Positions 14,159 through 60,326 of a DNA stretch of 64,000 bases are shown piece after piece. Below the pieces are notes generated by a model that had not been told where the DNA came from, did no database searches, and saw nothing but the letters and a program-made list of their open reading frames with translations. The stretch is from Lampris incognitus (lineage: Eukaryota > Chordata > Actinopteri > Lampriformes > Lampridae), in the NCBI RefSeq assembly GCF_029633865.1, contig NC_079213.1:84044803-84108802 (forward strand), written 5' to 3'. Position numbers and translations under genes: made by a program. Numbering within the stretch: the first letter of the stretch is position 1; each line of letters begins with the position of its first letter.

Positions 14159-14675
14159 TTCTCTTTCTCCCCAATTGCAGCAACTACCATTTTATTCTAA
14201 GTATTAGGACTAAGAATGGGGGATGCTTTAATAATTAGGGATAATTTAGCTGGAATAAGTGCCTTATCCATGTGTTATTGTCAATGAGCCTGTCTGCGTA
14301 TACTTAAATAATATGTGTAATGAGATGTGTGGGAATGTATGTATATCTCTTTATTTGTGTTTAAGTAAGTGCATATACTGCATATATCGCTGTGTCTGTC
14401 TATCATGTTTGTGTGCATATAAGTACTTAGCACTAGGTGTCTGACTATTGAGTGGTTCCAATTGTAACAAACAAAGCCCCTTTGTTTTCATGCATGTTTA
14501 GTTGATGATTTTGTTTGTTTGTTTTTATTTTATTTTTTTCTCTGACTTGCTTGTTTGTTTTTTGTTTTTTTTTAGTGTCAAGGGGAGGGGGGGTTGTGTG
14601 TTTTGATTTTTGTGTGTATTTTTGGGTAAAATATAAAAACTATAAATAAAGTTAAAAAAAAACATTCATGTAGTG

Positions 14676-14928
14676 ATGTGTAGTGATGTGGTGAAATGCT
14701 TGGATGGCACAGCAGATACTAGCATCCCAATACCAGAGGTTGATGGTTTGAATCTCGGTGGTGCCTCTGGCTTGGCTTGGCCTCTCAGGGACACCTTCAA
14801 GAAAAGCACCTATCAAATGAGTAAATGTAGTTTTGTATAATGACGTGGTGTCCCCTAATCATGGAGGAGGTTTTAAGTAAGAGGTGGGGGGTGATATAGA
14901 CGCGAGCAGTAGTGACCCCCATACGTTC
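14676..14928. other. Spacer with possible SINE fragment
   Basis: About 14700-14810 contains GGTTTGAATCTC, which resembles a tRNA B-box, followed by GCCTCTGGCTTGGC, which is like the body of the SINE family found at 28028 and elsewhere. It is too short and diverged to be sure. Confidence 0.35.
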
Positions 14929-26612: not shown

Positions 26613-26940
26613 ATGGAGGCTGAGGACCTCAAGCTGCAACCGTTTGATATATGTAACAAGGAATGGGCAGAAGGCAACAAGCTCCATCCAGGGGAGCTCC
26701 TGACAGTCGCCACGTCCTCCATAGTGTCTCTCACTCTCAGGGAGGGGGATAAGAAGCAGCAGGTGCAGCTGGGCTGGCCTGTGGATGTCAATAAGCGCAC
26801 AAGTCAGAGAGCGGAGTGTCCTGGGGCCTGGGTTCATTCTGAGCCTCATGTGATGATGGGGACACTACCTCTTGTCCAATCACAACAACAGAGGGAAATA
26901 CCTGCAGCCATAAAGCCCAAGCCTCCATCATCACAGCAAG
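26613..26940 (+). CDS. pik3r2: Exon 1 (coding): start codon and degenerate SH3 domain
   Basis: ATG at 26613 with [12 protein letters not shown], followed by [20 protein letters not shown] and CPGAWV. These align with the p85 SH3 order (LHLGDIL, IGWLNGYNETT, FPGTYV). The ALYDY tyrosines and the final YVEY are replaced, so the proline-binding groove is probably altered. After the SH3 comes a short proline-containing stretch (KPKPPSS). The exon ends in AAG/GTAAAT, phase 1. I found no other exon in the next 4.7 kb. Confidence 0.7.
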
Positions 26941-29179
26941 GTAAATCTGTACATCTCATTGACAGAACTGAGTTTAAAGGAACAAGTGTCTTGAGGCATG
27001 CTCAAGGAAAGAAATCCCAGAAAGTTGAGTCAGTTCATCTGGACACATTAAACTTTGTGTCCAGATGAACTGATTCAACTTTCTGGGGTTAAAGGAGCAA
27101 GTAATTTAATATTGCATTCATGCAGGTCATTAATCCCATCTATTTCAAGACAAAATGACCAAAATTTTTCATGGAGTGAATTGCTTGAGCTGTAACTGTA
27201 CAATAGTAGTGGTGTTGTATTATGACTGTTCTGCATGCTCAGATATTATGTTTTAATATGTATCCTGATAATACCCCTGATAACCTATTAACTAAAGTAT
27301 GTTTTGAAATGTCATTCAAATTCCGTAATTTTAATCCTTGAAAACATCTTGGATAGCTCCCAGTCCTGACTATTTATTCAGTAACGTCAAGCCAAAAGAA
27401 TAAATTACAGTAGTGCAGACACAGGAATTTTAGACAATAAAATGAAGTACTCTAAATGGTTTTGTTAAGATTCCTATTAAAATTTTCGAGTTGAGATTTT
27501 TTTTCAAGAAATTACATCACTTCTTAGACCTTAGTCAACCACTGTTGGCAGGTGATTTGTTTATTTATTTATCATCTGGCACTTTACAAGTAAAAAAAAA
27601 AATTTCAGAGAAAATACTTTCAGATACTGTATGGCCAGAATCTGACCAGGTTTCTTTTGGCTGTGATAACAAATGTGTTTTCAATGCACTTGTTATCCTC
27701 CAATACATTCAGTGACTAGTCCTGGATGCACAGCAGTAATATTTTGTCCAGATTGCTGCTCATCTGCAGCAAATGAGATATGGGAGCAAGCAAGGCTTGT
27801 GATGGTCCAGGCAAAACTTAATCACAACACACACAGAGATTATCTAACATTACTTAAAAAGCCATCAGAGAAAATGTTGAAATCTGTTCTAATCTCATCA
27901 GTAAATAAATGTTGTGCTGTCTTGCTGAGATGAACCATAAAACAGGATGTAAAGATAGTGTGAAACGGCATTCAGAGCGTATCTTGCTTCTATAATATGA
28001 AGTATTTCCAAGTAAAACAGGATGTTAAGGGCGTCCAGGTAGCGTAGTGGTCTATTTCATTGCCTACCAACACAGGGATCATTGGTTTGAATCCCTGTGT
28101 TGGTACACAGGGACACAATTGGCTGTTTCTGCAGGTGGGGTGCACTAGCGTCTCCTCTGGTCAGTCGGGGCGCCTGTTCGGGGAAGAGGAAGAACTGGGG
28201 GGAATAGCGTGATCTTCCCATGCGCTAGGTCCCCCTGGTGAAAGCCTTCGCTGTCAGGTGAAAAGAAGCAGCTGGTGACTCCACATGTATCGGAGGAGGC
28301 ATGTGGTAGTCTGCAGCCCTCCCCAGATCGGCAGAGGGTGGAGCAGCAACTGGGACGGCTTGGAAGAGTGGGGTAATTGGCCGGATACAATTGGGGAGAA
28401 AAACAGGGGGGGGGGGAAAACCAGGATGTTAGGGCAGGCCAAAATGTAGGCACAGCCTTCAGATATTTGATTGGTTTGTGCGAAACATTTTATGATATTA
28501 ATGGCTGGAATGTTTTTCTCCCGTCCGCCCACACTTGGTGATGCAATCACAAAAACTGTCTGTTTTAGAGGAAGTTAAGATGATTAGTTTTTAATGTTAA
28601 ATGATTAAAATTTTAATTTTTGTGATTTTTTTCCACTTAAGTTATTGAATACTGGTTTACACTTTATTTTAGGGGGTCGGAGATTACCAAGTAATTTCCT
28701 AGTAATGAGGTGGTAATTATCCCGTAATTTCTTAGAAATACGATTGAAATTACCTTGTAATTTGGGTTAGGGTTAGGGTTAGCTGTAAAATTACCTGTAA
28801 AAACTACCACCTTATCACTAGGAAATTACAAGGTAATTCCCGAACCCCTAAAATAAAGTGTTACCGAATACTGTACTATGTACATAATATGGAAATGATG
28901 AAATGAGCTAACAAAGTTAAAAAGTACATGTTCACATTGTCTTTAAGAGTAATTATGTCAGAGGGTTTCTTCGAGGCACACTGTGACAGAGCTTTGCTGG
29001 TTGTTGGCACTCAGTTAACAAGTTCATGCTCAATGTAATTTTATAGCTGCATACGTGTGATTCCTATCTGATATAGCTTATGTCTACACCAGTGATTTAA
29101 TACTTCATGAAGCATGCCAATCTGAGTGCTGAAGGGATGATCTAAATAAACTACTAAAAGCTAAAAACACACCTCTTTC

Positions 29180-29249
<70 letters not shown>

Positions 29250-31346
29250 TGCTTGTAAAATGCCTGACAGACAGATTCTCACCTGTCCCTAGCCCCCTAA
29301 TGCCAAGGCAACACACCCACTCACAATAATTGAAAACACAGTCGCAGTGCAGCCCCATAGGTCTGGTGTACGAGGCCTGGCAGGGCAGGTCTGAGCAGAC
29401 AGCTGTTGTTTGTTGGGCGAGGCGAGGCTGAACGGTCAAGCAGCAGCTAGTCTGGCTGACTGTGCCTGAGCTGGAGTAGAGGAGCGCCGGGTTTGGTATT
29501 TAAGGCACTCAGACAGTGTCACCTGTCACCCAACGAGTCTGGGCAGTGTCTCCCAGATGGTACAAGACCAAGCAACGCAACCATATCTCCCTCTGGACTG
29601 CTCGCCAGAGGCCCAGTAGTGCTTACACAGCCACGTACAGACTGGACGTGGCCGTTTTTTTTCCAGAGTTCTCGGGGCTTGAGATGGGACAGGGTAACAC
29701 CCTCATGGTTTTCCTGCCCAACTCGCCCTGCCCTGCTGTTCCCGAGTGTTGTTTTCTTTCCTTAGAGACAACCTGCCCAAGAACGAAGGTAGGACACAGC
29801 AAACACTATAGCTTTTCTTTGTATAGCTTTGTTGAGAGAGCGAGATTAGGGAGGCATCAAAATAAAAATTCTTGGCCTATCCTGAGTTTTTGATCAAAAT
29901 CAAAACAGTTACCAAAAAAAAGAAAAGAAAAAAAAAGTGCTGTCTACCAGTTTGATAACTAAGAGCGGTTGGTCATCCAAGACAATGAACGTTATGCTTT
30001 TTTTTCTGCTGTGCCCTTTGCTGTTGTATTGCCATGGCAGAAATTAGTTTTTGTTTTCAGACTTTGATCACTGATGGAGTATTTGATGTGTTCAGATGAA
30101 CTGATTCAACTTTCTGGGCTCTCTCTTCCGTCTCTGTTGTCACTCCACAGCAGTGTGTCACTGTACTCAGTGTGCTGATTAGTATGTTGTATTTTCAAGT
30201 GGTAGGTTAGACTTTTAGTGAAGAAGTTCTTTGGCCAGTGGCCCATCTTTATTGTTAAGGAGTAAGTAAACATTGGTTTTTATGGCCTGTTTCTGCCTAC
30301 TCACATTTAGTAAAAAGTGATATAAAAGGTGTAGATGTAGAGGACAGTGATGGTGGTGTCCATGTATAAAGGATATAAAGAGGTGTAGATGTAGAGGACA
30401 GTGATGGTGGTGTCCATGTATAAAGGATATAAAGGGTGAAGATGTAGAGGACAGTGATGGTGGTGTCCATGTATAAAGGATATAAAGGGGTGTAGATGTA
30501 GAGGACAGCGATGGTGGTGTCTGTGTATAAAGGATATAAAGGGTGTAGATGTAGTGTCCATTGAAGGCGGTGTCCATGTATAAAGGATATAAAGGGGTGT
30601 AGATGTAGTGGACAGTGAAGGTGGTGCCCATGTATAAAGAATATAAAGGGGTGTAGATGTAGTGGCCAATGATGTTGGTGTCCATGTATAAAGGATATAA
30701 AGGGGTGTAGCTGTAGAGGACAGTGATGGTGGTGTGGGTTAGGCTGAAGGTGTTCGAGAGTTTAATTGGCTAATGCAGGTGTGTTGTCTTTCGACTTGCT
30801 TCATGTTTTAATAGTCTAACATGCTGGGCCTGCACATGTGTCGTCTACATCACATGGGTCTTGGCATCTCTAACGCCCCCATATTAGCTACATCAGCAAA
30901 ACGGGGGGGGGGGTAATTGTACTGTGTGAATGTGAGAAAAAGCATAGATTTTCTCCCTCAACGGGGCCATGTGATGACTCGGTTATTGTTGAATTTATCA
31001 CCAGGGCAATCAGGTGTACCATCCTAGGCCCATATCAACATGTTTTTCAGCTCAGTATAATAATAATAATTGAAAGGTTTACAATCCCTTCTCAGGAGAC
31101 AAGCCTTTACAAACAACTTCTTTGTTGTCTTTGGGAGAAACTGTGAAAAAGCTCCATTCACTTTACTTTTTCACTGATGTTAGGTCAGCCTGTCATTAAT
31201 TAACTGCACCAAAGACAAATAAGAATTTGTGTGCTATGACCTAAACAGGACATAGAAGGAACTGAGGAGAACAAAAAACACAATTTTAGTATCAACAGTG
31301 GTGTCAAACAGAATAATATGATACACAGATAGATACAGAGATAGAA

Positions 31347-31427
<81 letters not shown>

Positions 31428-34400
31428 GGGGCAGTTGTGGTAGGGAGGGATCGTTCCAGTGTTTGGGGGTTAGGACTTAGTAACAGGCTTTGAATTAGGA
31501 GGTAGCCTGGACTGGGTGAGAGCAAGGACTCTCAAAATGTGATGCTCCTGGAGGTCTAATATCTAATCTGAGGCAGAGCCATTCCAGATCTGAAAAACAG
31601 ACTGGATTTTTTATGTCTTAGAGATAGAGAGTCCTTTTGATGGCCACATATCTTGTCACCTCTCTCGACAGCTTGTTCGCCCAGAGCCAACAAAGCCAAA
31701 GCCAAAGCCATGGCAACATGTGATTCCAGCACTGATGACAACCTGTTATCTGATGCAGAGTGGTACTGGGGAGACATCTCAAGGTATCAGCAACATCAAG
31801 GATTTACAGCTTGTATAGACCACAAATCTTTTTTTTTTTATGCTTGCAAATAATCTCTGACTTGTGTTAAAATCTGGTAGAAAGACCAGGGAGCATCCCT
31901 GAAGACTGACTGAGCTTTGCTCTTCTGTAATCAGGAATCAGGAACAATTTATTGTCATTTCTATCATGTACTTGTGTACACAAAAGAAACGAAATTTCAT
32001 TTCACCCAGCCCACAGCGGTGCAACACAAACGATAAAAACACACATCCAAAATGTCCAAAACTGATACCACCAAAAACACACAAAAACAGAGAGAACAAA
32101 GGAAAAAAAAACAACAAAAAAACAAAAAAGAACTAAAACAGTTAACAACACAGTCCACTCAGTGCAACACAGTCCAAAAATTCCACCGTCCAGAGAACGA
32201 ACTCCAGCCAGGATGACTGTCGGAACTGCCGGTCTGCATGAACTAGCAGTTAGCTTAGCCTGCCCTGCTTCCGCATCTTGTCAGACTGCCCTCGGTGCTT
32301 CCTCTTAGGGTGCAGCTCCAGGCTGGGCCATGGTCCTTGGGCCCACCGAAAGCAGCAGACCAGGCTCCCTCAGCCGATCCAATGCTAGCTCTCCCAGCCA
32401 GACACCTTCGACACGCTTCCCCCGCACTCCACATAACGACACAAACACAGACGCAGACAAAAACACTGCACAGTTGACACCAGGCAAGGCCACCACTAGA
32501 CCGCCTCGGTGTTTCCTCTTGGGCACAGCTCCAAACAGGGCCGTGGTCCCTGGCCCACAGGATTCAGCAGACCAAGCTCTCTCGGCCGATCCAACACTAG
32601 TTCTCCCAGCCATTAAACGGGGGAGAAAAAAAAAAATCGGAGATCGAAATAAAACTTCACACGTTGAGACAAACCTAGACGCAGACGCAGACATGAACAA
32701 AGACACTGCATAGTCGATACTGGGTGAAGCCACTGCAGATATGAGTTCGCGCCACAATCTTCCCACATTCAGCAGTTGCAAGGACGATCTGTCTGCCTTT
32801 ATCTTCATTGGCAGATGAAACAAGCAAATTATAACCCTGAACAAAGTTTAAAAAGTAGTTTATTCGCTTTTTCACTGTCCAGGAGTTCTGTCCTGTTTTG
32901 AATGTTTTTAGCATTTTTCCATCTCTCTTTTTTGTCTAGAGAAGAGGTAAATGAGATGATGAGAGACACTCCTGATGGCACCTTCCTGGTCCGAGACGCC
33001 TCCAGTAAGGTTAAAGGGGAATTTACACTCACTCTTAGGTAAATGAATTGATGTCATTTAGTCTTTTTTATTATTTGTTTGCACTTGTATGCTCCTGTAG
33101 TGATATAAGACACTCCCAACAAAAGCATGCACTAACACAATGTCAACTATGTGGGGGCGTTAAGAGCTGTTTCCAACTGTCATGTATGGCTTTTTGCAGG
33201 AAGGAGGGGAACAACAGACTGATTAGGATTTTTCAGCGGGGAGGGAAGTATGGTTTCGCTGAGCCGCTTGCCTTCCCCTCTTTGGTGGAGCTGATCCAGT
33301 ATTACCACAAAGAGTCCCTGGCCCCTTACAATGCCAAACTGGACACACGACTACTCTACCCAGTCTCCAGACACCAGCAGGTTGGCATCCATGGCCTGCT
33401 GGCCCTACAACTCTCCCTGTATGAAAATTCCCATTTTGCATTTTAGGCATTTTATTTCATCCAGAGTGACCAAAAGCAAGTTGGCAGGAACGCATTCATT
33501 GTTTGTTTAAGAACTTCAGCATAATACGTGCCGCTGTTATGGTGATTCATACGTTTTTATGTACAAATAGCATGCAACAATTTTTTTTCAAGAGAATCCT
33601 GAAATATTTTTTAACATGTCATTCATCATTTCTTTTTTGTGACCCACTAAAGGCAAAAAAAATGTAAAACTTTTTTTCCCCCTCAAAGGCCAATTCCAAG
33701 GCCAACGTGAGTTCATTTTTTTTCAGTAAGCTGTAATGAGAATGAATAATGTAATACAGGTGTTTCCAAAAGGGGGTTTAATACACTATTGTTTTGCACT
33801 TGCATTGCAAATTATTACTGACAGCAGGATGGGGCAAATTTCTCAGAAACAAAACACACACAAATGAAAACCTAAACCACATGAACTTTGGTCTTCACTT
33901 GCACTCAAAATGCTCACCATGTCTTTTGAAAACGAGGCTTACCATCATTTCCAGCTCTCATGTCTGTCCCAGGCAGTCCTCTGTAATACATGATAGCACA
34001 AGAGCACAGCAGTGTGTTCCCTTCGTGTCCGGGATGCTGTGGGTTTGACCTCGGCACTCCTTGCCAGTGGTTAATTGTGATGTATGTTGGTCTTTGAAGA
34101 TCTGTGAAATGGTAGAAAATCATTTCAAAGGCTTATCCATAGGTTTGAGATAAACCTACAAGCTGTGAAATGTCAAAGAAAATAGATTGGCTTCTTTAAA
34201 AAGGAGATCTTTGGGGCGTCCGGGTAGCGTAGCAGTCTATTCCGTTGCCTACCAACATGGGGATCGCCGGTTCGAATCCCCGTGTTACCTCTGGCAGTGT
34301 TTGCGGGTGGGAAGCTGGATGTGGGTATGTCTCCTGATCGCTGCACTAGCGCCGCCTCTGGTCGATAGGGACACCTGTTCAGGGGGAGGGGGAACTGGGA

Positions 34401-35027
34401 GAATAGCGTGATTCTCCCATGCGCTACGTCCCCCTGGCAAAACTCCTCACTGTCAGGTGAAAAGAAGCAGCTGGCGACTCCACATGTATCGGAGGAGACG
34501 TGGTAGTCTGCAGCCCTCCCCAGATTGGCAGAGGGGCTGGAGCAGCGACCAGGATGGCTTGGAAGAGTGGGGTAACTTGCCAAGTACAATTGAGGAGAAC
34601 AGGGGGGAAAAAATCCACAAAAAAAAGGAAATCTTTCATGGAAATGAAGCATCCCTCGCTCCTGTGTTGATGATGTTGTCTGTATCTGTTATGCCCTGAC
34701 CAGCAGCAGCTGCTGAAGGAGCACAATGATAAGACAGAGGGAGAACAGCCGAAGATCTACCAGCAGCAGCGCTGGCAGACCGACAAAGACTCTGATTTGC
34801 TCTTCCAGGAGTTAATACGGACCTTCCAGGTATAGGAGGAGGGACAAAACATGGATGGCCTGGGCTTTGCCAGACCTTCAATACAACTGACTTGAATTCA
34901 GTGAGGTCCAGGACTGTTTCACAACTTAGGTCTTGAGGAAAGAGGGTGTAAGATTTACAGTGTGATTGGAAGATCTCATATGATCCCTGTTTTTTTTTAG
35001 TCCGCAAACTCACTTCATAAATAAACA

Positions 35028-35091
<64 letters not shown>

Positions 35092-38000
35092 GTATGTATA
35101 TAGTGAGAGAGAGAGAGAGAGAGAGAGTTCAAGGGAAGGTTTACAAGATGGTACTGAGACCCGCTATGGTATATGGTTTGTGGAGACAGTGGCACTGATG
35201 AAAAGACAGGAGGCGGAGCTGGAGGTGGCAGAGTTGAACATGCTAAGATTTTCATTGTGAGTGAGGAAGGAGGACAGAATTAGGAATGAGTATATTAGAG
35301 GCACAGCTCAGGTTGGACGGTGTGGAGACAAAGCAAGAGAGGCAAGGTTGAGATGGTTTGGACATGGGTGGAGGAGAGATGCTGGGTATATTGGGAGAAG
35401 GATGGTGAATATGGAGCTGCCAGGGAAGAGGAAAAGAGGAAGGCCAAAGAGGAGATTTATGGATGTGGTGAGAGAAGACATGCATGTGGCTTGCCTAACA
35501 GAGGAGGATGCAGAGGACAGGAAGAAATGGAAACGGAAGATCCGCTGTGGCGACCCCTAACGGGAGCAGCCTAAAGTAGCACTAGTAGTAGTATATACAC
35601 ATATAAGCAGTTATTAACACAACACACAAATAACACTACTACTTGCTGAACTTGCACTTAAAATTCTTTGTCCTTGTCTAAGAAAACATTTTATTCCTTT
35701 TCTCTTACTCGGCGCTCTTCTCTAATATCACACATAAGAACTCAACGGTCTCAAACATTTATTCACTCATTACTCAAGATTTACCTGCTTAATTTGATTC
35801 AGAGTTGCTTGGAGTTTAAAGTGGCCGATGTAGCTAACACACACATGTCCATGGACTATGGAAACATGAGTATATGGCAGAAACGTGCACGAATACCAGC
35901 AGAATGATCAGGACCTTCTTTCTGTGTGGCTAACCGATAAAGCTTCATGCCAACAAGTACATTTGTTAGATCTATTGTATTTCTAAGGTGTTGACCCTTG
36001 AATGTTTTACTACTGGGTGTTTTTAGAGTCATCGGTAGTCAGAGATTGTTGTACTGTTGCTCTCAGTGTAAGTCACTTTAGATGTAAGCTTCAGCTAAAT
36101 GCCTTAAATGTAGATGTAAGTGTTTTGTTTCCCATATTCCTCAGGAGCAGCCAGGCAAGCAGACAGCCACTGAGGTGTTTGCTAAAATCATGCGGATCTT
36201 TGAGGAGCAATGTGAGAGCCAAGAGCATTACAGCAAGGAATACATAGACATGTTCCTCAGACCTGAGAACAGTACGGACACTGAGAGGTATGTGTTCAAT
36301 ACTCGCACACACTTTCACACCTTTTGAATTTAGTGTAATTTATTGTGCAGTGGAAAGATTTCACCTGTTTTCCTTTTGCAAAAACATATAATTCGAGCCT
36401 AAATCAGAGCATAGTCATTTTAATTTAATTTCAGTATGAGGGAGAGCCTTGAGCAATGTCTTTCATACACTGAAGTAGAGTGGCTCAGGGTGGCACAACA
36501 TTGACACTGACGAACCAGAAAAAATAATATTGACAACAACAATAATTCACAACACAGCAGCCTTAAGCCAACACACAATTGTAAAGCAATGAAAAATTGA
36601 CAGCTCAACAACACTAACCTTCAATGCAATAGCATTTAGCCACAACAAAAGAACATTCAGCTACTACACGGTGGCATTAGACCACAGCACAGCGGAAATC
36701 ATTTCACGACAAATGAGAGGTGGACTTGAACACTTTATTTTCCCCTCAACATTGTCTACCATACTCTCCCAACCTCATTAGTTGTCTGTTCCAAAGTAGC
36801 ATGATGGGATTTCAGAGGACAACAGTCATCAGTAGTCATCAGGTCAGAGCCCTGACTCGACAGCAGGGATGCACTTTCTCATTGCTGATACAGACTCAAA
36901 GTACTAAATGTTCCGTGTTGCCTCTGGCTTCGTCGGGCGTCGCTACAGACACAATTGGCCGTGTCTGCGGGTAGGAAGCCGGATGTGGGCATGTGTCCTG
37001 GTCACTGCACTAGCCCCTCCTCTGGTCAGTCAGGGCGTCTGTTCGGGGGGGGGGGGGACTGGAGGGGGAATAGTGTGATCCTCCCACACACTATGTCCCC
37101 CTGGTGAAACTCCTCACCATCAGGCGAAAAGAAGTGGCTGGCAACTCCACATGTATCGGAGGAGCATGTGGTAGTCTGCAGCCCTCCCCAGATCGGCAGA
37201 CAGGATGGAGCAGTCACTGGGATGGCTTGGAAGAGAGGGATAATTGGCCGGATACAATTGGGGAGAAAAAGTAGGGAAAAAAGTACTAAACGTTGAGTAT
37301 TTGTCGATACAGATCAGTTCTTATTGACTGAATGTCAATAAGTGACCTGATCACTTGATCAGTGACCTGATCACTTGCTTTTACTGAAAAGTACATATCG
37401 GACTATGGGCTATAAGCTTTCAGAAGTGGTCTTTCTTTTTCATTAAAGGCATACTCCGTAATGGTGTGAAACAGCAGCCTCCAGGGCAAATGAAAGCCAC
37501 CTGGTTGTTGCACTTTGCCTTTGTTTTTAGTTTTGGTCTGATATCTGGGTATGTGTGTGTGTGTGTGTGTTTGAGTGGAGTTGGAAGAGGGGAGGGGTAG
37601 TGAAAGTATGGGAGGACATTTTTCACAATGACAGATGGAGTTGAGCATCCTCACCTGGGAAGTATACGAGCTTGTGGCAGCTCTCGTCATCATATAAATA
37701 GCCTTTGTTTTAATAACGGGCTGTTGTACCTGTGCCAGAGCCCAGCCATGCCACAGACTTACCACACACATCTTAACAGGGTCTGCCTTTAACAATGATC
37801 TGACAATTGTATCCGGCCAATTATGCCACTCTTCCGAGCTGTCCCGGTTGCTGCTCCACCCCTCTGCTGATCCGGGGAGGGCTGTAGACTACCACATGGC
37901 TCCTCTGATACATGTGGAGTTGCCAGCCGCTTCTTTTCAGCTGACAGTGAGGACTTTCGCCAGGGGGACGTAGCGCGTGGGAGGATCACGCTATTCCCCC

Positions 38001-41000
38001 CAGTTCCCCCTCCACAGGCACCCCGACCGACCAGAGGAGGCGCTAGTGCAGCGACCAGGACACATACCCACATCTGGCTTCCCACCCGCAGACACGGCCA
38101 ATTGTGTCTGTAGGGCCGCCTGACCAAGCTGGAGGTAACATGGGGATTCAAACCGGCGATCACCATGTTGGTAGGCAACGGAATTGACCGCCACACCACC
38201 TGGACACCCTAGGATGTTTTAATTTCTGACATGTTACAGTACATGTAGCTCTTGAAATTTACCAAGGTGTTGTCAAATAGCATAACAGTAATGGGTGCTT
38301 TCGTAAAGGTGAAACAAAGTTCTGATATGGGAGCTTAACACCGAGAATCAATGCAAGCTGATGAAAACCAAATTTCAAAAAGCCTGTAAGTTTTATGAAT
38401 CACCTGTTATTTGAATAATAGTGAAATAGACTACTTTTCAATAAACTAACAACCCCAATATTCCTTCATTTTTATCAACCTGCAGACAAGCGTGTTGGGG
38501 CAGTAAGAAATGAGTTTGATGTTCAGTGTGAAAGAAAACAGCATAAGGCTTGTCTTGAACTATCACTGTTATCAGTGTTATCGCTTCAGGAAAACTCATC
38601 TAATGGGATGAGGGAACGTGCCTGTCACACATGTACAGTACTAGCTAGGGTGTGACTGTTGCAGAAGTCCGTTTGGGGGAAAAGAAACGCGTTTAAATCC
38701 GCCTCTCCATGGTGAAACAACTTCATTTGTGTTGCAGCGAAATGCTGTTCATGTGGTCAATATTTTGTTCTGCTCAGAAAATGTTGTTGGGTTTTGAAGT
38801 GATGCTCCACTTATGTTCATCAACAGGAAGGCATTTAATTCTCATTACCGTGTCTCTGACCAAAAGGTTTCCATTGATGAAAATCTTTTTCACCTCATAG
38901 TCTGGTAAAATACGTTGATGAGGTTTTTGTTCTTCCCTCACCCAGGATCCAAAGTGAACCTGACGAGCTACGAGTGAAAGTGGGGGAGATCCACAGTAGC
39001 CAGCAGAGGCTGGGGGAGGAGCTGAGGAGGGAGGTGCTGGCCAACATGGAGGCTGCCAGCAAGCTGTTAGCCCTGAAACCTGACCTTGCCCAGCTCAGGA
39101 AGATCAGAGACCAGTACCTATCGTAAGTGCAGACCTTCAGAAAATCAAATTCCAGCAGTGTTGATCTGACAGTAAATATCAGTTTTCTTCTCTTAAAGAA
39201 AATGTAAACGCAACAAAAGGCTTTAAAACATTTGAACTTTACTATGAAAACTGGATTTTTCTGCTTCTCTTTTTCCTATTTCTTATTGGGAGTTTTGCTG
39301 TAAGGAAATCAAGAGATGAAACTGACATGCTATACTCATAGCTGTTAACTTTGATTAAGCCTAGTTGTTGCTCTTTTGGAAAACACCAAAGGTTTCTAAA
39401 AAGCTTTTTAATGGTGAGGTTTTACAACAGGACCTCAAATTCATCTCTTTTGTTATGGGAACCAGTAATAAAGCAATCTTCTGGTATGGCTGAATTATAC
39501 TTCAAAAAGCAGTTGTTTCAAATAAACCATTTATTTTTTTAATGCACAATGAGATGTGATTTTTACAGAAAGCAAATAGGGTGCTGGGTGTCCGGGTAGC
39601 ATAGCGGTCTATTCCACTGCCTACCAACATGAGGATGACCGGTTCAAATTCCAATGTTACCTCCGGCTTGGTCGGGGCGCCTGTTTGTGGGGGAGGGGAA
39701 GTGGGGGGAACAGCATGATCCTCCCATGCACTACATCCCCCTGGTGAAACTCCTCACTATCAGGTGAAAAGAAGAGGCTGGCGACTCCACATGTATTGGA
39801 GGGGGCATGTGGTAGTCTGCAGCCCTCCCCGGATCGGCAGAGGGGGTGGAGCAGAGACCAGGACAGCTCGGAAGAGTGAGGTCATTGGCCAAGTACAATT
39901 GGGGAGAAAAATGGGGAACAATCCAAAAAAAAAAAAGGAAAAAAAAGCAAATAGGGTGCTTTTGTAGCAAGGGTTTCAATAAGTATGTAGTTTTTATAAC
40001 TTTTTAACTTAACCATACTCAGTAATAAGGACCACACTCTTTGGACTCCTTTGTTTTATCATTGTCACAGGTGGCTTACCCAACAAGGCACAAAAAAGCA
40101 CCGTATCCATGACTGGCTGGTGTTGGAAAACCAGGATGAAGAGTGAGTGTTATCCCTCCTTTTGCCAGCAACACCTAGTTTACATTTACCCTATTTTATG
40201 TTTACCCAGTTACACGCCTCCACACCAGGGCATTGTCCAACACAACCAAAGGGTTCTGTACAAACAGTTTCTAAATTAGACGCATTACTGAAGGGAACCA
40301 TATCAGTTGTTGAACTAAATGAAATGCCCCCCCTCCTCTACCAAAGCCCGTACACCCTGGTGAACGATGCCCACTGTGACGACAAGAACTGGTACGTGGG
40401 CAGTATGAGCCGAACCCAGGCAGAGGAGCTCCTTCGAGGGAGGAGAGATGGGACCTTCCTGATCAGAGACAGCCAGACTCAGAAGGGCTCCTTCGCCTGC
40501 TCTGTGGTGTGAGTGTAGAGACATTGCATACTATTTCTTAAAATCTTGATTTATTCATCATATTCACTTCAACCTGGGTGTTTCCACTGAGATTGAGAAT
40601 CACCTGCCAGAAAATCAGTTTCAGGGGCGTCCAGGTAGCATGGTGGTCTATTTCGTTGCGTATCAACACAGGGATCACTGGTTCGAATCCCTGTTATACC
40701 TCCAGCTTAGTCGGGCATCCCTACATATACAATTGGCCGTGTCTGCGGTTGAGAAGCTGGATGTGGGTATGTGTACTGGTCGCTGCACTGGCGCCTCCTC
40801 TGGTCGGTCAGGGCAGCTGTTCGGGGGGGGGGGGACTAGGGGGAATAGCGTGATCATCCTGCATGCTACGTGCTCCTGGCAAAACTCTTCACTGTCAGGT
40901 GAAAAGAATCGGCTGGCAACTCCACATATGCAGTGCATTCAGAAAGTATTCACACCCCTTCGCTTTCCCCACATTTTGTTATGTCACAGCCTTATTCCAA

Positions 41001-43121
41001 AATGGATTAAATTCCTTTTTTTCTCATCAATCTACATACAATACCCCATAATGACAAAGTGAAAAAGGTTTTGTAGAAATTTTTGCAAATTTATTAAAAA
41101 TAAAAAACTGAAATATTTCATGTACATAAGTATTCACACCCTTTGCTATGACACTAAAAATTGAGCTCAGGTTCATCCTGTTTCCACTGATCATTCTTGA
41201 GATGTTTCTACATCTTGATTGGAGTCCACCCATAGTAAATTCAATTGATTGGACATGATTTGGAAAGCCACACACCTGTCTATATAAGGTCCCACTGTTG
41301 ACAGTGCATGTCAGAGCAGAAACCAAGCCATGAAGTCAAAGGACCTCTGACACAGGATTGTATCGAGGCACAGATCTGGGGAAGGGTACAAAAAAATTCT
41401 ACAGCTTTGAAGGTCCCGAAGAGCACAGTGGTCTCCACCATTCGTAAATGGAAGAAGTTTGAATCCACCAGGATTCTTCCTAAAACTGGCCACCCAGCCA
41501 AACTGAGCAATCGGGGGAGAAGGGCCTTGGTCAGGGAGGTGACCAAGAACCCGATGGTCACTCTGACAGAGCTCCAGCATCCCTCTGTGGAGACGGGAGA
41601 ACCTTCCAGAAGGACAACCATCTCTGCAGCACTCCACCAATCAGGCCTTTATGGTAGAGTGGCCGGACGGAAGCCTCTGCTCAGTAAAAGGCACATGACA
41701 GCCCGCTTGGAGTTTGCCAGAACGCACCTAAAGGACTCTCAGACCATGAGAAACAAGATTCTCTGGTCTGATGAAACCAAGATTGAATTCTTTGGCCTGA
41801 ATGCCAAACATCACGTCTGGAGGAAACCAGGCACCTCTCATCACCTTGCTAATACCATCCCTACAGTGAAGCATGGTGGTGGCAGCATCATGCTGTGGGG
41901 ATGTTTTTCAGCAGCAGGAACTGGGAGACTAGTCAGGATAGAGGGAAAGATGAATGGAGCAAAGTACAGAGAGATCCTTGATGAAAACCTGCTCAAGAGT
42001 GCTCAGGACCTCAGACTGGGGCGAAGGTTTACCTTTCAACACGACAATGACCTTAAGCACACAGCCAAGACAACGAAGGAGTGGCTTCGGGACAAGTCTG
42101 TGAATGTCCTTGAGTGGCCCAGCCAGAGCCCAGACCTGACCCCCATTGAACATCTCTGGAAAGACCTGAAAATAGCTATGCAGCAACACTCCTCATCTAA
42201 CCTTACAGAGCTAGAGAGGATCTGCAGAGAAGAATGGGAGAAATACCCCAAATATAGGTGTGCCAAGCTTGTAGCTTCATACCAAAGAAGACTTGGGGCT
42301 GTAATCGCTGCCACGGGTGCCTCAACCAAGTACTGAGTAAAGGGTGTGAATACTTATGTACATGCAATATTTCAGTTTATTATTTTTAATACATTTGCAA
42401 AAATTTCTACAAAACCTTTTTCACTTTGTCATTATGGGGTATTGTCTGTAGATTGATGAGAGAAAAAAGGAATTTAATCCATTTAGGAATAAGGCTGTAA
42501 CATAACAAAATGTGGGGAAAGTGAAGGGGTGTGAATACTTTCCGGATGCACTGTATCAGAGGAGGCATGTGGTAGTCTGCAGCCCTCCCTGGATCAGCAG
42601 AGGGGGTGGAGCAGCGACCGGGACGGCTTGGAGAGTGGCGTGATTGGCCAGATTCAATTGGGGAGAAAAAGAAGGGAAAAAAAAGAAAGAAAAAAAATCA
42701 GTTTCAGACAAACTAACAGAAGATTACTTGTTTCCTGGAGAGAAATATGAAACACAATGGAAAAAATAACAGCCAGTCTGAATTGGGACTTATCGTGACC
42801 CTGTTAAACTCACGCTCTATCTGTTGAACCACACAAAATCACATCGTTAATTAAATAAAGTGCGTTGAACATGACCTTGTCTTTAAGTGTTGCAGAAAGT
42901 CTGATGTACTCTCTACTTTTTCCCGCTGTAGTGCAGATGGAGATGTGAAGCACTGTGTGATCTACAGGACATCCACAGGCTACGGCTTTGCAGAGCCCTA
43001 CAATCTCTACCCCTCACTGAGAGAACTGGTCCTGCACTACAGACACACCTCACTGGTCCAACACAACCAGCGACTGAATGTAACATTGGCCTGGCCCGCT
43101 CTCAGCCAACAGCCCATCTGA
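26613..43121 (+). CDS. pik3r2: PI3-kinase class IA regulatory subunit (p85/p55-like), ten coding exons
   Basis: This subunit binds the p110 catalytic chain and recruits it to phosphotyrosines at the membrane. Exons 26613-26940, 31672-31783, 32940-33038, 33200-33380, 34704-34829, 36145-36287, 38946-39122, 40071-40142, 40347-40508 and 42932-43121 keep one frame with GT-AG borders and give 1590 nt (529 codons plus stop). Domains: degenerate SH3 (about 1-85), N-SH2 (about 140-239, FLVRD Arg165), inter-SH2 coiled coil (about 241-410), C-SH2 (about 428-522, FLIRD Arg453). The p85 BH/RhoGAP domain was not found between 26941 and 31671, so the protein is between p85 and p55 in layout. The ifi30 gene downstream matches human PIK3R2-IFI30 order, hence the symbol. 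The sequence is markedly divergent, and a fish-specific paralogue is possible. Confidence 0.8.
26941..28017. other. Intron 1 (first part); hairpin, no exon seen
   Basis: Contains the 32 bp-arm hairpin at 27016-27087, described separately. No BH-domain exon recognised on the + strand. Confidence 0.5.
27016..27087. repeat. Inverted repeat, 32 bp arms, 8 bp loop
   Basis: 27016-27047 and 27056-27087 are reverse complements with one mismatch; the core is CAGTTCATCTGGACACA. One arm recurs at about 30091-30117 in the same intron. Confidence 0.92.
28028..28421 (+). mobile_element. tRNA-derived SINE, family B, copy 1
   Basis: The head reads GGCGTCCAGGTAGCGTAGTGG (A-box region) with B-box-like GGTTTGAATCCC. 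The body includes CTCCACATGTATCGGAGG and CAATTGGGGAGAAAAA. Flanked by CAGGATGTTA at 28018-28027 and 28422-28431. Confidence 0.9.
28658..28868. mobile_element. MITE with TACACTTTATTTTAGGGG-type ends and telomere-like core
   Basis: Left end ACACTTTATTTTAGGGG (about 28660) and right end CCCCTAAAATAAAGTGT (about 28845-28861) are reverse complements. Internal arms (CTAGTAATGAGGTGGTA and TACCACCTTATCACTAG) also pair. GGGTTAGGGTTAGGGTTAG lies in the centre (about 28765-28783). Confidence 0.85.
29182..29245. repeat. (CA)n microsatellite
   Basis: About 31 CA units. Confidence 0.97.
29246..30320. other. Intron 1 (middle); no exon recognised
   Basis: The open stretch 29516-29893 (125 codons) was examined as a possible BH exon or alternative first exon. 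A TATTTAAG box at about 29498 precedes it, but its translation shows no p85 motif. An isolated copy of the hairpin arm lies at about 30091-30117. Confidence 0.4.
30321..30740. repeat. Minisatellite, ~53 bp unit, about 8 copies
   Basis: The unit contains GTGTAGATGTAGAGGACAG, GGTGGTGTCCATGTATAAAG and GATATAAAG. Variation between units is a few bases. The long histidine/threonine-rich frames on the minus strand are artefacts of the repeat. Confidence 0.93.
30741..31671. other. Intron 1 (last part), with (GACA)n at 31347-31429
   Basis: About 20 GACA units. The rest is unassigned intron ending in the acceptor of exon 2. Confidence 0.6.
31672..31783 (+). CDS. pik3r2: Exon 2: linker and start of N-SH2
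   Basis: Acceptor TCTCTCGACAG at 31671, donor AAG/GTATCAG after 31783. Encodes a lysine/alanine linker, then [14 protein letters not shown], the classic start of the p85 N-SH2 (the Arg matches p85alpha R340, which contacts the p110 helical domain). The phase-1 start fits exon 1 directly. Confidence 0.85.
31925..32770 (-). mobile_element. Retroposon (unclassified), copy 1; partner at 45675-46505
   Basis: Lies in intron 2 on the minus strand. Shares with the + strand copy at 45675 the start (GGTGTGGGAAGATGGC-like), an internal partial duplication (GGCAGTCTGACAGGATGCGG-type blocks), a T-rich stretch and an end with AATTCCTGAT. I infer a non-LTR-type retroposon. No conserved protein domain was recognised. 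Confidence 0.7.
32940..33038 (+). CDS. pik3r2: Exon 3: N-SH2 phosphotyrosine pocket
   Basis: Acceptor TTTTGTCTAG, donor TTAG/GTAAAT. Encodes [20 protein letters not shown] through LTLR. The FLVRD arginine that binds phosphate is intact, and 33 codons match the family exon length. Confidence 0.95.
33200..33380 (+). CDS. pik3r2: Exon 4: N-SH2 C-terminal half
   Basis: Acceptor TTTTTGCAG, donor CAG/GTTGGC. Encodes [39 protein letters not shown]. The lysine in NAKLD corresponds to p85alpha K379 at the p110 interface. Confidence 0.95.
33381..34200. other. Intron 4, first part
   Basis: No repeat or exon recognised. Confidence 0.4.
34213..34624 (+). mobile_element. SINE family B, copy 2
   Basis: Complete head (GGCGTCCGGGTAGCGTAGC, B-box GGTTCGAATCC at about 34270) to tail. 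Flanked by AAGGAGATCTTT (34201-34212) and AAGGAAATCTTT (34625-34636), a 12 bp target duplication with one change. Confidence 0.93.
34704..34829 (+). CDS. pik3r2: Exon 5: inter-SH2 coiled coil, first part
   Basis: Acceptor CTGACCAG, donor CAG/GTATAG, 42 codons, as in mammalian p85 genes. Encodes [13 protein letters not shown], then [20 protein letters not shown]. The helical pattern is kept but identity is low (YDxLYEEYTRTSQ is replaced). Confidence 0.88.
35029..35127. repeat. (CA)n, (TA)n and (GA)n microsatellites
   Basis: Three consecutive dinucleotide tracts in intron 5. Confidence 0.95.
35128..35600 (+). pseudogene. 5'-truncated LINE tail (RTE-like), C-terminal ORF piece
   Basis: The open frame 35261-35560 encodes [31 protein letters not shown] and [10 protein letters not shown], ending KIRCGDP. 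This is the C-terminal end of an RTE/CR1-type reverse-transcriptase protein. The 5' part is missing, as is usual for LINE insertions. The tail has TAGTAG repeats. Confidence 0.75.
36145..36287 (+). CDS. pik3r2: Exon 6: inter-SH2 coiled coil, middle
   Basis: Acceptor ATATTCCTCAG, donor GAGAG/GTATGT. Encodes [20 protein letters not shown], closely matching the KIFEEQ...SKEY core of p85 proteins. Confidence 0.95.
36915..37285 (+). mobile_element. SINE family B, copy 3 (head missing)
   Basis: Begins within the body (CTTCGTCGGGCGTCGCTACAG). The A- and B-box region is absent. It carries a G tract at 37045-37059 and the usual CAATTGGGGAGAAAAA end. Confidence 0.85.
37796..38213 (-). mobile_element. 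SINE family B, copy 4 (minus strand)
   Basis: On the minus strand, head at 38213 (GGGTGTCCAGGTGGTGTGGC) and tail at about 37796. The B-box is changed (GGTTTGAATCC). Confidence 0.88.
38946..39122 (+). CDS. pik3r2: Exon 7: inter-SH2 coiled coil, end (altered p110 C2 contact)
   Basis: Acceptor CCTCACCCAG, donor TATC/GTAAGT, 177 nt as in mammals. The [16 protein letters not shown] end is conserved. The preceding turn that in p85alpha reads EIDKRMNS is EAASKLLA here: the positions of p85alpha D560 and N564 are Ala367 and Leu371 of the predicted protein. Confidence 0.93.
39586..39943 (+). mobile_element. SINE family B, copy 5
   Basis: A 17 bp target duplication, AAAGCAAATAGGGTGCT, is at 39569-39585 and 39944-39960. 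The body is shortened relative to copy 1, and the tail is A-rich. Confidence 0.95.
40071..40142 (+). CDS. pik3r2: Exon 8: linker between inter-SH2 and C-SH2
   Basis: Acceptor ATTGTCACAG, donor GA/GTGAGT. Encodes [16 protein letters not shown], matching the WLTQKGxRQKKxNEWL motif of the family. Confidence 0.92.
40347..40508 (+). CDS. pik3r2: Exon 9: C-SH2 first half
   Basis: Acceptor CTCTACCAAAG, donor GTGGT/GTGAGT. Encodes [17 protein letters not shown], then [10 protein letters not shown] and SFACSVV. The phosphate-binding Arg is present; the following residue pair is DS where most p85 proteins have ES. Confidence 0.93.
40931..42553 (+). mobile_element. Full-length Tc1 transposon (1623 bp) inside a SINE
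   Basis: Inverted repeats of about 210 bp (40931-41143 and 42341-42553) start CAGTGCATTCAGAAAGTATT / CAGTGCATCCGGAAAGTATT. An inner copy of the GTATTCACACCC motif gives the IR/DR layout seen in Sleeping Beauty-like fish elements. It sits at a TA within the CACATGTATCGG site of the SINE; the left flank reads CACATATG, a small change. Confidence 0.95.
41308..42336 (+). CDS. Tc1/mariner transposase, uninterrupted 342 codons
   Basis: Would cut and paste its own element at TA sites in the nucleus. The N-terminal paired-type DNA-binding region includes [17 protein letters not shown] and a [18 protein letters not shown] segment with the second helix-turn-helix. The DD34E catalytic triad is present: Asp in [12 protein letters not shown] (about residue 152), Asp in [12 protein letters not shown] (about 245), and Glu in DLTPIEHLW (about 280). 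The length is normal for Tc1 proteins. The first ~30 residues look poorly matched to a helix-turn-helix, so a short early deletion or frame change is possible and activity is uncertain. Confidence 0.9.
   Translation: MSEQKPSHEVKGPLTQDCIEAQIWGRVQKNSTALKVPKSTVVSTIRKWKKFESTRILPKTGHPAKLSNRGRRALVREVTKNPMVTLTELQHPSVETGEPSRRTTISAALHQSGLYGRVAGRKPLLSKRHMTARLEFARTHLKDSQTMRNKILWSDETKIEFFGLNAKHHVWRKPGTSHHLANTIPTVKHGGGSIMLWGCFSAAGTGRLVRIEGKMNGAKYREILDENLLKSAQDLRLGRRFTFQHDNDLKHTAKTTKEWLRDKSVNVLEWPSQSPDLTPIEHLWKDLKIAMQQHSSSNLTELERICREEWEKYPKYRCAKLVASYQRRLGAVIAATGASTKY
42932..43121 (+). CDS. pik3r2: Exon 10: C-SH2 second half and stop
   Basis: Acceptor TTTCCCGCTGTAG. Encodes [53 protein letters not shown] and ends QPI-stop (TGA 43119-43121). 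Confidence 0.95.
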
Positions 43122-54382: not shown

Positions 54383-54529
54383 ATGATGAAGTTAAAGTCG
54401 TGTTTGGTGGTTTCCCTCCTTTGCCTCCTCACGGTTGAACAAAGTTCCGGAAAGTCGCATCCCGAACCGTCCTGTTCGTATCCTCCGTCGCAGTGGTGCC
54501 GCTCCTTGGAAATCGCGATTGAATGCCAG
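54383..54529 (+). CDS. ifi30: ifi30 exon 1 (signal peptide, N-terminus)
   Basis: Two ATGs in tandem (54383, 54386); either can start. The hydrophobic segment ends near EQSSGKS. Donor CCAG/GTAAGA. Confidence 0.92.
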
Positions 54530-57500
54530 GTAAGAAGAAACGCTGCCGACCAGTTCCCGTTATAAACCCATGTTGCCTCCTTCCCCGTGTCCCTCTGTGA
54601 AAGTATCAGTCAAATCTTTATGACGCTTCACCTCCCTTTTGTTGTAATGTCGTCGATCAAAGCCTCTCCTCTGTCTCCCAAACTTCCAGTGAATTGCGTG
54701 CACATATATCCGAAATCAAGAGGAAACGACTAAATAGTAGTGATCTATTGTCATAAAAAGATCGCAGGAGGGGAAAATGAAGCTCCTCATCTCTGAATAG
54801 TCCCATGTGCCGTGTGTAGGTTAGCCTTGTTCTCATCACTTCATACCAATGTGTCGCCTGGCTTCTTCAAAACGTCCAATTTCCCATTTTAAAACAAAAA
54901 TCATTGTCTACGTGAAAGTATACCTGTTGCTCCGCAAGAAATTTTAGCATATTTTTCCTCGGTATATATCTATTTGGGATTTCGCGTGGGTTTAGTCAAA
55001 GATAGGCTTGTCAAAGGATAAACGAGAGTCACGCCTTTCAAATTGAACACCAGAGGTTTTCCATTTCCAAAGAAACGACATGTGACGACTAGGAGGTCAG
55101 GCTGAGCCGCCTCGATGTGCTTAGACGGACGGCTGGATGGACCAAGCTTTTTTTGTTTTTAAACAAACAAAAACATTACTTGACGTTCAGATGTCATCGC
55201 CTGATTTTAATGGATTTTTCCTGAACTCTTTCATGCATGAATTATGACAACCTCAGTCAGGATTTTTTTCGTTAGTGTTTTTGTTCCTCTCTAGGCATGA
55301 AAAAAAAGTAACTTTTTTTGTGACGGCCATTTTTCAAGGAGTTCTTTTTACATGTCCACTTGGGTGGACATCATGCATTTCAGGTTTCAACTGAAGAAAT
55401 ATGTATTTAACAAACCAATGAATAAAATAGGTGAAAACTACAAAATAATATATATCTTTATTACTGTTAAACTAATGTGTTCACATATTTTCAACATTAC
55501 TCAACATTTTACTCATATTACTCAACATTATATTACTCAATATAATGTAATGGATGGAATAATATATAAAATTATATAAAATTACTCAACATTTACTTTT
55601 CACTTCCTAAAAAGGAGGCAAGTCTTCCTCAAACTGGTTGTCTTTGGTTTTCCAGACAATTCTGCTTTTTTCTGTCCTTGAGCTCTATCAGGTGGTACAT
55701 CCTCAGCCCCCTCAGCTTCCTCAGCTCCACTGTCACTACTGCTAGCATTTGTTAATCCTTCTTTTTCTGGCAGCCATTCATCACTAGCGTCATCCTCACT
55801 TGACTCAGATGGTATTTGTGTCGCTATCCCGTAGGCCTTTCTAATCACGCACTGCTCTTGAGCTCTACAGAATATAAAGATACCAACTGCTACTCGCATA
55901 ATGGAACTATCCATCCATCCATTAGCCAAACCACTTACCCTGCTCTCAAGGTCATGGGGATGCTGGAGCCTATCCCAGCAGTCATGGGGCAGCAGACAGG
56001 GAGACACCCTGGACAGGCCACCAGGCCATCACAGGGCCGACATACACACACATTCACACTTAGGGACAATTTAGTACGGCTGATTCACCTGACCTACATG
56101 TCCTTGGACTGTGGGAGGAAACCGGAGCACCCGGAGGAAACCCACGCAGACACGGGGAGAACATGCAAACTCCACACAGAGAACGACCCAGGACAACCCC
56201 CAAGGTTGGGCTACCCCGGGGCTTGAACCCAAGGACCTTCTTGCTGTGAGGCGACCGTGCTAACCACTGTGCTACTGTGCCACCCATAATGGAACCAATC
56301 TGCACAAAATATTGCTTTTGTTACAAAAACTACAAGTTATCTTATAATAACATAAATCAATTGATTTATAGCCAAAAGGTTACTGCAGTTGTAGTAATGA
56401 TATGAATTGTAGTTGAAATATAGCCAGTGATGCATGATGTCCAATTTAGCGGACAGATGATTAATCGTAATTTCATCCAAACATAAAATGAATACCTGGA
56501 CATTTAAAAAAATGTTTTCACTCTTTAGTTGTTACTTGATGTTACCAAATTTTATTTACCAGCAAGGGTCTCCAACTATAGAAGGATTGGCAAGATATTC
56601 CTGAGCTGCTCAGCACTTCTGGCTGTTTGTTGGCCATCTTGGGTTTGAGAAATTTGTATTGCTCTTACAACGGCTGGCCAGTGGGTGACTGTGTATGGGA
56701 TGATGCACTAGCGTCCACTGTGGTGACTGATGTGCAACTATAGCATCAAAACCCACGCATATACAAGAAAACTGCTTTTGAATAGCTGTCTACTGTAGTG
56801 GCCACTATGCGTGTTAATATGAATTGATGATATAGGGTTTCTTTAAAATGTTGTCATATTTGAATGATCTGTTAAGTTTTGTCAGACCTGGCACATTTTA
56901 TAATTTATCTCAAGCATGAAAGTTGATCTAACTAACTTTAACTATCATTGTAAGTCTATGCTCACTGTGAGAAATGACAGTCTCTTTGAAGACTTCTCTT
57001 GGTGTAAGTTATTTTTTTCACTTTAGGTTCAAAAGCAGTGTATGGAGCTGAATGCCATAAGGCCCAACCCATCTGTACCCACAGTGGATGTGACTCTGTA
57101 CTATGGGAGTCTGTGTCCGGGCTGCAGGGCCTTCATCACCCAACAGCTCTTCCCTACCTGGACCATGCTGCAAGACATCATGACCGTCAACCTTGTGCCA
57201 TACGGAAACACAAAGGTATGCTTTGCCCATCCCTTAGCGTTATGTACCACTTGTATACGGTGCATTTACAGTCTGTCACTGGCTGCCGCACATCTTGTCT
57301 GGTCGACCAGGTTGTATTTGTGTGTACCTGTTGCACTTGGTGAGCTAAAGTGATGTGGCTGCTCGCCCAAGTTGACTGTTGCACTGTTGTAATGTAGGAC
57401 AGGTTTCAGAGAGGAAACTTTGTTTTTTGTTTTTGTTTGTTGTTTTTTTTAAATGGAGAACAACTTTTTGAAAAATCGAGACTCATCCTCTAATTTCTTT

Positions 57501-58946: not shown

Positions 58947-58954
58947 GTGAGGAA

Positions 58955-60321: not shown

Positions 60322-60326
60322 CAGCT

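What the first reader, a model, noticed from the sequence alone, without database searches (positions are those of the whole stretch)
26613..43121. PI3K regulatory subunit gene with SH3 exon phase-compatible with N-SH2 and no visible BH (RhoGAP) domain
Class IA p85 proteins have SH3-BH-N-SH2-iSH2-C-SH2, and p55/p50 forms lack both SH3 and BH. Here the SH3-containing exon ends in phase 1, and the N-SH2 exon starts in the matching phase. Direct splicing gives a 529-codon frame with the stop in the right place, and I could not see a BH exon in the 4.7 kb between. An SH3 plus SH2s but BH-less subunit would be an unusual third architecture.
Basis: partly seen in the sequence, partly recalled or inferred. 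Interest (0 to 1): 0.72.

Follow-up and report, generated by a model that had tools for sequence, protein, structure and literature searches.

The report
Fish PI3K subunit lacking RhoGAP domain
A fish carries two copies of the p85-beta PI3-kinase regulatory gene; one is ordinary, and the copy in this window has evolved fast, has no detectable RhoGAP (BH) domain, and still has a worn SH3 exon in front of its SH2 domains.

Summary
Ten exons (26613-43121) with GT-AG introns give one open 529-residue frame: p85-type SH3, nSH2, iSH2, cSH2. No BH domain is detectable in the 4,731 bases between the SH3 and nSH2 exons: spliced alignment with human and same-genome BH queries scored within the range of shuffled or other window sequence, while true BH loci scored 189-254. 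A genome-wide search with the sister gene's BH gave no place at the window locus.

The genome shows six class IA regulatory genes. The window gene is the fast-evolving sister of an intact pik3r2 (SH3-BH-SH2s) on another contig. Both lie downstream of a MAST-type gene, and IFI30 follows the window copy. Best reading: one of two teleost pik3r2 duplicates, which lost its BH exons.

The SH3 has lost typical groove residues, and iSH2, alone among nine sequences, has lost D560 and N564, contacts that restrain p110. Splicing of SH3 to nSH2 is inferred; no RNA data were available.

The parts
26613..26940 (+). coding exon 1: start codon, divergent p85-type SH3, linker ending Q-Q and the first base of an Ala codon; phase-1 donor GTAAAT
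26941..31671 (+). intron 1 (4,731 nt); in the sister gene the matching span is 20,905 nt and holds five BH exons; no BH detected here; holds interspersed and simple repeats
31672..31783 (+). coding exon 2: linker and start of nSH2 ([10 protein letters not shown]); phase-1 acceptor; in-frame ATG at 31710 in a GCCATGG context
32940..33038 (+). coding exon 3: nSH2 (FLVRDAS)
33200..33380 (+). coding exon 4: rest of nSH2
34704..34829 (+). coding exon 5: iSH2
36145..36287 (+). coding exon 6: iSH2
38946..39122 (+). coding exon 7: iSH2, with the D560/N564 positions changed to A and L
40071..40142 (+). coding exon 8: end of iSH2
40347..40508 (+). coding exon 9: first half of cSH2
42932..43121 (+). coding exon 10: second half of cSH2 and stop
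57027..57765 (+). two open frames with IFI30 (GILT) exons downstream, the synteny marker for the PIK3R2 locus
   Evidence: Pfam GILT E 1.8e-13 (57027-57350) and 1.1e-6 (57472-57765)

Best explanation
The gene is one of two teleost pik3r2 (p85-beta) duplicates. After duplication the other copy kept SH3-BH-nSH2-iSH2-cSH2, while this copy evolved about six times faster in the part compared (nSH2 to cSH2) and lost its five BH exons. SH3 and nSH2 exons became neighbours in frame because the BH module lay between phase-1 introns. The predicted protein still binds phosphotyrosine motifs through both SH2 domains and p110 through iSH2 (inferred from family matches and kept FLVR arginines). It cannot contact Rab/Rho GTPases or PTEN through a BH domain, its SH3 is unlikely to bind PxxP ligands or dimerise as in p85-alpha, and its changed iSH2 should restrain p110 less. 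In effect it is a p55-like adaptor with a worn SH3 cap. Shown: gene structure, homology, phylogeny, synteny, absence of a detectable BH. Inferred: splicing of SH3 to nSH2, protein activity, timing at the teleost genome duplication.
For: Intact 10-exon frame, junctions from exon 2 on reproduced by an aligner. p85-type SH3. SH2s and iSH2. No BH signal above background with human and same-genome queries, with working controls, and no BH place at the window locus in two genome-wide searches at E<=10. Tree of 9 sequences: window sister to the C17 pik3r2 copy (SH-aLRT 91.4, UFBoot 88), inside the beta clade (99.9/100); placement with gamma or alpha rejected (AU 0.024, 0.009); branch 0.626 against 0.099. 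MAST-type (PF08926) exons lie upstream of both copies and IFI30 downstream of this one. PMC4632047 (passages read) names pik3r2b as lost in medaka, in a passage on teleost-duplication copies, and reports Ka/Ks>1 for pik3r2 at the base of teleosts. D560 and N564 kept in 8 of 9 sequences, lost only here; their role from PMC6359268 passages.
Against: No transcript data. The SH3 exon is weakly constrained: pN/pS against the sister 0.74, compared with 0.38 for the SH2-iSH2-SH2 part, and it hits no Pfam model. At 0.4 substitutions per site neutral drift would still leave it stop-free in 65 of 2000 simulations, and at 0.1 in 568 of 2000, so recent disuse is possible. With the human alpha BH query the region was high in the shuffled range at two of four intron costs (1 of 150 and 3 of 150 nulls at or above it; 5 of 200). 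The other queries did not repeat this (lowest: sister BH, 18 of 200; human beta, 22 of 150), and 5 of 35 other real stretches did as well or better. A tblastn of human beta ran 34 residues past the SH3 donor into the intron frame, over the start of the BH, at the tail of a 26% alignment; I read it as overrun. A single short relic BH exon would often be missed. The genome-wide searches score only the best candidates, so absence there is not exhaustive.
Confidence: 0.68

Rival explanations
1. The SH3 exon is a relic. The working transcript starts at an internal promoter in intron 1 and uses the ATG at 31710, giving a 407-residue p50-like subunit without SH3.
For: In-frame ATG in GCCATGG context at 31710, and a TATTTAA box at 29497 upstream of a GC-richer stretch ending at a GTAGGA at 29789 (read by eye). 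p55/p50 forms of PIK3R1 lack the N-terminal domains (passages; their internal promoters are recalled). SH3 weakly constrained.
Against: The SH3 exon keeps its start codon, frame, ungapped alignment over 74 residues to human alpha and a strong phase-1 donor (top 0.5% of GT sites in the window by a simple matrix). Neutral drift at 0.4 substitutions per site leaves no stop in only 65 of 2000 simulations, indels ignored. No p55-type first exon was found with human p55-gamma (in one search an alignment ran a little upstream of exon 2, but through a stop and a gap).
Confidence: 0.22
2. BH exons exist but are too diverged or too short to detect, so the gene is an ordinary p85.
For: The gene evolves fast, and single BH exons at 33% identity rose above the 95% null level in only 13 to 30 of 30 simulations, depending on the exon.
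Against: A complete five-exon BH at 20% identity exceeded every null in 45 of 50 simulations and at 25% in 50 of 50, though without indels. Real human beta BH with its indels: 40 of 40. The sister gene's BH query gave 44.9 in the region against 189 and 219 on the two pik3r1 loci.
Confidence: 0.05
3. Assembly or local deletion artefact in one individual: BH exons dropped from this haplotype only.
For: One assembly; intron 1 is rich in repeats. The sister-BH search left two weak unassigned places, on C2 (E 0.148, 40% identity, two stops inside) and C18 (E 2.61).
Against: No N in the window; no strong unassigned p85-beta BH place in the assembly; and the whole gene, not just the BH, is diverged, as expected of an old duplicate.
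Confidence: 0.05

Closest known systems
p85-beta (PIK3R2), including the intact sister copy on contig C17 of the same genome
   Same: phylogenetic sister, MAST-type gene upstream, same junction phases around the BH module, SH3 first exon, SH2-iSH2-SH2
   Different: no BH domain; worn SH3; fast iSH2 with D560/N564 changed; 4.7 kb in place of 20.9 kb between SH3 and nSH2 exons
p55-gamma (PIK3R3) and p55-alpha/p50-alpha (PIK3R1 short forms)
   Same: no BH; nSH2-iSH2-cSH2
   Different: these lack the SH3 as well and begin with their own first exons (recalled; the pik3r3 first exon was found in this genome); the window has an SH3 exon and no p55-type exon detected
p85-alpha (PIK3R1)
   Same: SH3 and SH2-iSH2-SH2 order; best solved-structure matches
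   Different: has BH and a working SH3; tree placement with alpha rejected

Membership tests
Class IA PI3K regulatory subunit | nSH2-iSH2-cSH2 core | tested here: met
   SH2 twice (E 2.6e-42), PI3K_P85_iSH2 E 1.8e-32
Class IA PI3K regulatory subunit | FLVR arginine in both SH2 domains | tested here: met
   R358 and R649 kept
Class IA PI3K regulatory subunit | binds p110 | not testable with these tools
   iSH2 homology only
p85 (long form) | N-terminal SH3 | tested here: met
   divergent, 28 of 76 identical to the sister copy
p85 (long form) | BH/RhoGAP domain between SH3 and nSH2 | tested here: not met
p55/p50 (short form) | no SH3 and no BH in the protein | tested here: inconclusive
   BH absent; SH3 exon present in the gene but its use in mRNA is unknown
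PIK3R2 orthologue | groups with human beta and fish pik3r2 | tested here: met
PIK3R2 orthologue | MAST3 - PIK3R2 - IFI30 neighbourhood | tested here: met
   PF08926 exons (that this domain marks MAST kinases is recalled) upstream at C3:83.98-84.007 Mb; which MAST gene it is was not tested; IFI30 in window; the human order is recalled, with the neighbours listed together in a table row of PMC10875133 (passage)

The most novel reading that the evidence does not exclude
A third stable architecture of class IA regulatory subunit, SH3-nSH2-iSH2-cSH2 without BH, used as a naturally de-repressed adaptor: it has lost the BH-based PTEN/GTPase functions and both iSH2 residues whose mutation in human tumours releases p110, yet keeps phosphotyrosine control, so it would give some fish a built-in high-activity PI3K.
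Probability: 0.2. Interest if true: 0.68.

Novelty: new variant of a known kind. Interest (0 to 1): 0.45.

Why it matters
If expressed, it separates by natural experiment what the SH3 and BH domains of p85 do, and it carries changes at the two iSH2 contacts that are mutated in tumours while the rest of the fold is kept. It also shows how a duplicated p85 gene can move towards the p55 design. If only the short form is made, it is ordinary duplicate decay.

Tried and rejected
Phase compatibility as evidence: rejected, since the sister gene has the same phases. The first version of that aligner had an array too small for the longer queries and gave empty or zero results for three runs; it was mended. 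AlphaFold of the SH3 exon alone gave mean pLDDT 41.4 and was not used. A p55-type first exon was looked for and not found. The BH-like stretch at 29711-29788 scored 30 in an ungapped scan, below the 41 and 40 of a control intergenic stretch, and was dropped. Whether IFI30 also follows the sister copy could not be tested genome-wide (PF03227 search did not complete); a tblastn of three window IFI30 stretches against the fetched loci found nothing convincing, but two of the three stretches were in the wrong frame. Literature: six searches bearing on the question (two others, 38 and 39, were for exon numbering and synteny) listed no paper that by title or abstract start describes a BH-less SH3-bearing regulatory subunit; lists were capped (20 of 22 shown; 10 of 74 shown), and the library lacks most subscription papers, so this is no proof of novelty. 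PMC4617754 (section 11 and passages) reports a rho-gap domain in class IA regulatory subunits except p55-gamma homologues.

Rows dropped or trimmed: I removed a 20-residue read-in from the C1 pik3r1 model, an aligner artefact. The tree used only the part from the nSH2 start onward. In simulations BH copies carried no indels, except the human beta one. The 35 real stretches overlap one another, come from both strands of the window outside the gene (some cover IFI30 and mobile elements) and include the reverse strand of the region itself; one search used 34 of them.

[quoted passage not shown], answered) and the human p85-alpha SH3 letters (not completed). I joined exons of the window gene and of its five relatives in scripts, and concatenated adjacent fetched stretches of the same contigs. 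I made randomly mutated copies of the human BH and of SH3 exons in scripts for power and drift tests (which failed, 35, 47, 77). The report itself was sent back once for checking and once for its format. Unanswered because the machine was busy: 5, 19, 36, 42, 51, 52, 53, 62, 63, 66, 71, 72, 76, 78; the PF16454, human BH, PF08926 and sister-BH requests were repeated unchanged and later answered. The busy message asked for the same request again and not another form; the human SH3 request (52) was not repeated but replaced by the sister's SH3 (67), which departs from that wording. The window nSH2 request was not repeated, and the PF03227 request, repeated unchanged, did not complete. I know of no other departure.

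Full report
Check of the observation. I built a ten-exon model on the + strand from 26613 to 43121, all introns GT-AG, 1590 nt, 529 residues and stop. Pfam finds two SH2 domains and the p85 inter-SH2 domain. The first exon has no Pfam match at E<=10, but phmmer against PDB chains gives nine p85-alpha or p85-beta sequences at E 5.7e-7 to 1.6e-5, and its start aligns with the human start codon without gaps over 74 residues. The exon ends with Q-Q and the first base of an Ala codon, as does the recalled human p85-alpha exon 2.

Is the BH domain absent? I scanned 26941-31671 with ungapped HSPs: the best BH scores (34 with alpha, 38 with beta) were below those in a control intergenic stretch (41, 40), while the SH3 control gave 107 and the best iSH2 exon 133. 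I then wrote a splice-aware aligner. With human alpha BH at an intron cost of 18 the region scored 48.5; 5 of 200 shuffles and 5 of 35 other real stretches did as well or better. Over four intron costs (14, 18, 22, 26) the alpha query was met or exceeded by 1, 3, 18 and 49 of 150 shuffles; human beta by 22 to 41 and an averaged profile by 39 to 139 of 150. Power was good: simulated five-exon BH domains without indels exceeded all nulls in 45 of 50 at 20% identity and 50 of 50 at each level from 25% to 50%, and human beta BH with real indels in 40 of 40. Single exons are less secure (19, 13, 28, 30 and 15 of 30 above the 95% level, exons 3 to 7). With BH domains from the same genome the region scored 44.9 (sister pik3r2; 18 of 200 nulls and 8 of 34 real stretches at or above), 37.0 (125 of 200) and 33.2 (172 of 200) for the two pik3r1 copies, against 189 to 254 for four query-locus controls on true BH loci. 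Genome-wide, the human alpha BH gave 21 places and the sister BH 11 places at E<=10, none at the window locus; two weak places of the latter (C2, C18) were not identified. These searches score only the best candidates.

The genome's other copies. The iSH2 family search gave 16 matches that fall into six genes. Gene models for the five others: two pik3r1 genes with BH (C1:145.08 Mb, C15:35.12 Mb); one pik3r2 with SH3 and BH (C17:25.55-25.58 Mb); a slow pik3r3 with a p55-type first exon (C3:71.26 Mb); and a fast pik3r3 (C17:21.93 Mb). The sister pik3r2 has an SH3 exon of 319 nt (phase 1), BH exons of 93, 75, 153, 211 (196 with the beta query) and 86 nt, and an nSH2 exon of 103 nt. The BH set is a multiple of three in either version, so removing it leaves the frame. 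This is why the window's phases fit, and why that fit alone proves nothing. Four of the five fetched loci contain runs of N, so the models of the relatives may be incomplete.

Placement. A tree of nine sequences puts the window with the C17 pik3r2 copy (91.4/88) inside the beta clade (99.9/100). Constrained trees with gamma or alpha are rejected (AU 0.024, 0.009). The window branch is 0.626, the sister's 0.099. An earlier four-taxon test with human sequences only favoured beta (AU 0.909), rejected alpha (0.038) and did not reject gamma (0.131). MAST-type exons lie upstream of both pik3r2 copies (C3:83.98-84.007 Mb; C17:25.504-25.522 Mb), and a GILT/IFI30 gene lies downstream in the window. Contigs C3 and C17 each carry one slow and one fast member of the pik3r2/pik3r3 pairs, as expected of ohnologous chromosomes. 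A published survey, of which I read passages, names pik3r2b as lost in medaka in its account of teleost duplicates and reports positive selection on pik3r2 at the base of teleosts (PMC4632047).

What it probably does. Both SH2 domains keep their phosphotyrosine arginines, and R340 is kept; K379 is Arg. The iSH2 is only 41 to 45% identical to the human paralogues, which are 73 to 80% identical to each other. D560 and N564, which contact the p110 C2 domain and whose mutation activates PI3K in tumours (PMC6359268 passages), are Ala and Leu here and conserved in the other eight sequences. In the SH3, Trp55 and Pro70 stay, but Tyr12, Tyr14 and Asp21 are lost (that these line the ligand groove is recalled); Asp21 with Trp55 matters for p85-alpha dimers. 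I therefore predict a p110-binding, phosphotyrosine-controlled subunit with less restraint, no BH functions and a non-canonical or useless SH3. None of this is shown by experiment.

Is the SH3 exon still in use? Uncorrected pN/pS against the sister is 0.74 for the SH3 and 0.38 for the rest, with pS of 0.49 to 0.65, near saturation. Random substitution at 0.4 per site leaves the exon stop-free in 65 of 2000 runs, at 0.1 in 568 of 2000. So long neutrality is unlikely but recent disuse is possible. The ATG at 31710 could start a 407-residue short form. I put about 0.68 on the SH3-bearing reading and 0.22 on the short form.

Limits. One genome, no named species, no RNA, no other fish genomes in the tools. 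That the source is a teleost is inferred from the gene set and the duplicates. Human sequences and exon numbering were recalled; the PDB search supports the homology independently.

Noticed in passing
L039 (C3:71526373-71526609, -), L032 (C3:71407134-71407268, -), L044 (C3:71389500-71390700): Upstream of the slow pik3r3 gene, whose p55-type first exon lies near C3:71.27 Mb, there is a p85-type SH3 exon (61% identical to pik3r2 SH3, with a phase-1 GTGAGT at 352 nt) and at least two BH-like exons in order on the same strand. This fish pik3r3 may encode a full p85-gamma, although the family is described as lacking BH.
   Followed up: partly
C17:21.93 Mb (L022-L024, L028): A fast-evolving second pik3r3 (branch 0.436 against 0.016) for which the SH3 search (E<=1) and the two BH searches (E<=10) gave no place nearby; mirror image of the fast pik3r2 in the window.
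   Followed up: partly
41302-42336 +: A 344-codon open Tc1/mariner transposase frame (HTH_Tnp_Tc3_2, DDE_3) sits in the intron between the two cSH2 exons.
   Followed up: partly
31672-31720 +: The nSH2 exon reads KPKPKP in frame 0, like the PPKPPKP linker of the human proteins, but KAKAKA in the frame used; possibly an old frameshift with compensation, or just a short repeat.
   Followed up: no
30300-30735 +: A minisatellite of about 54 bp units in intron 1 has close copies in the pik3r1 locus on C1 (L013), so it occurs elsewhere in the genome.
   Followed up: no
54400-58950 +: IFI30/GILT gene; frames 57027-57350 and 57472-57765 matched by Pfam, further exons read by eye near 54.4, 58.1 and 58.9 kb.
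   Followed up: partly
1-17150 and 59400-63900: Dense mobile elements: pieces with reverse transcriptase, RNase H and integrase domains, and an open hAT-type frame of 452 codons at 15795-17150; LINE-like frames at 8.8-14 kb are judged by eye only.
   Followed up: no
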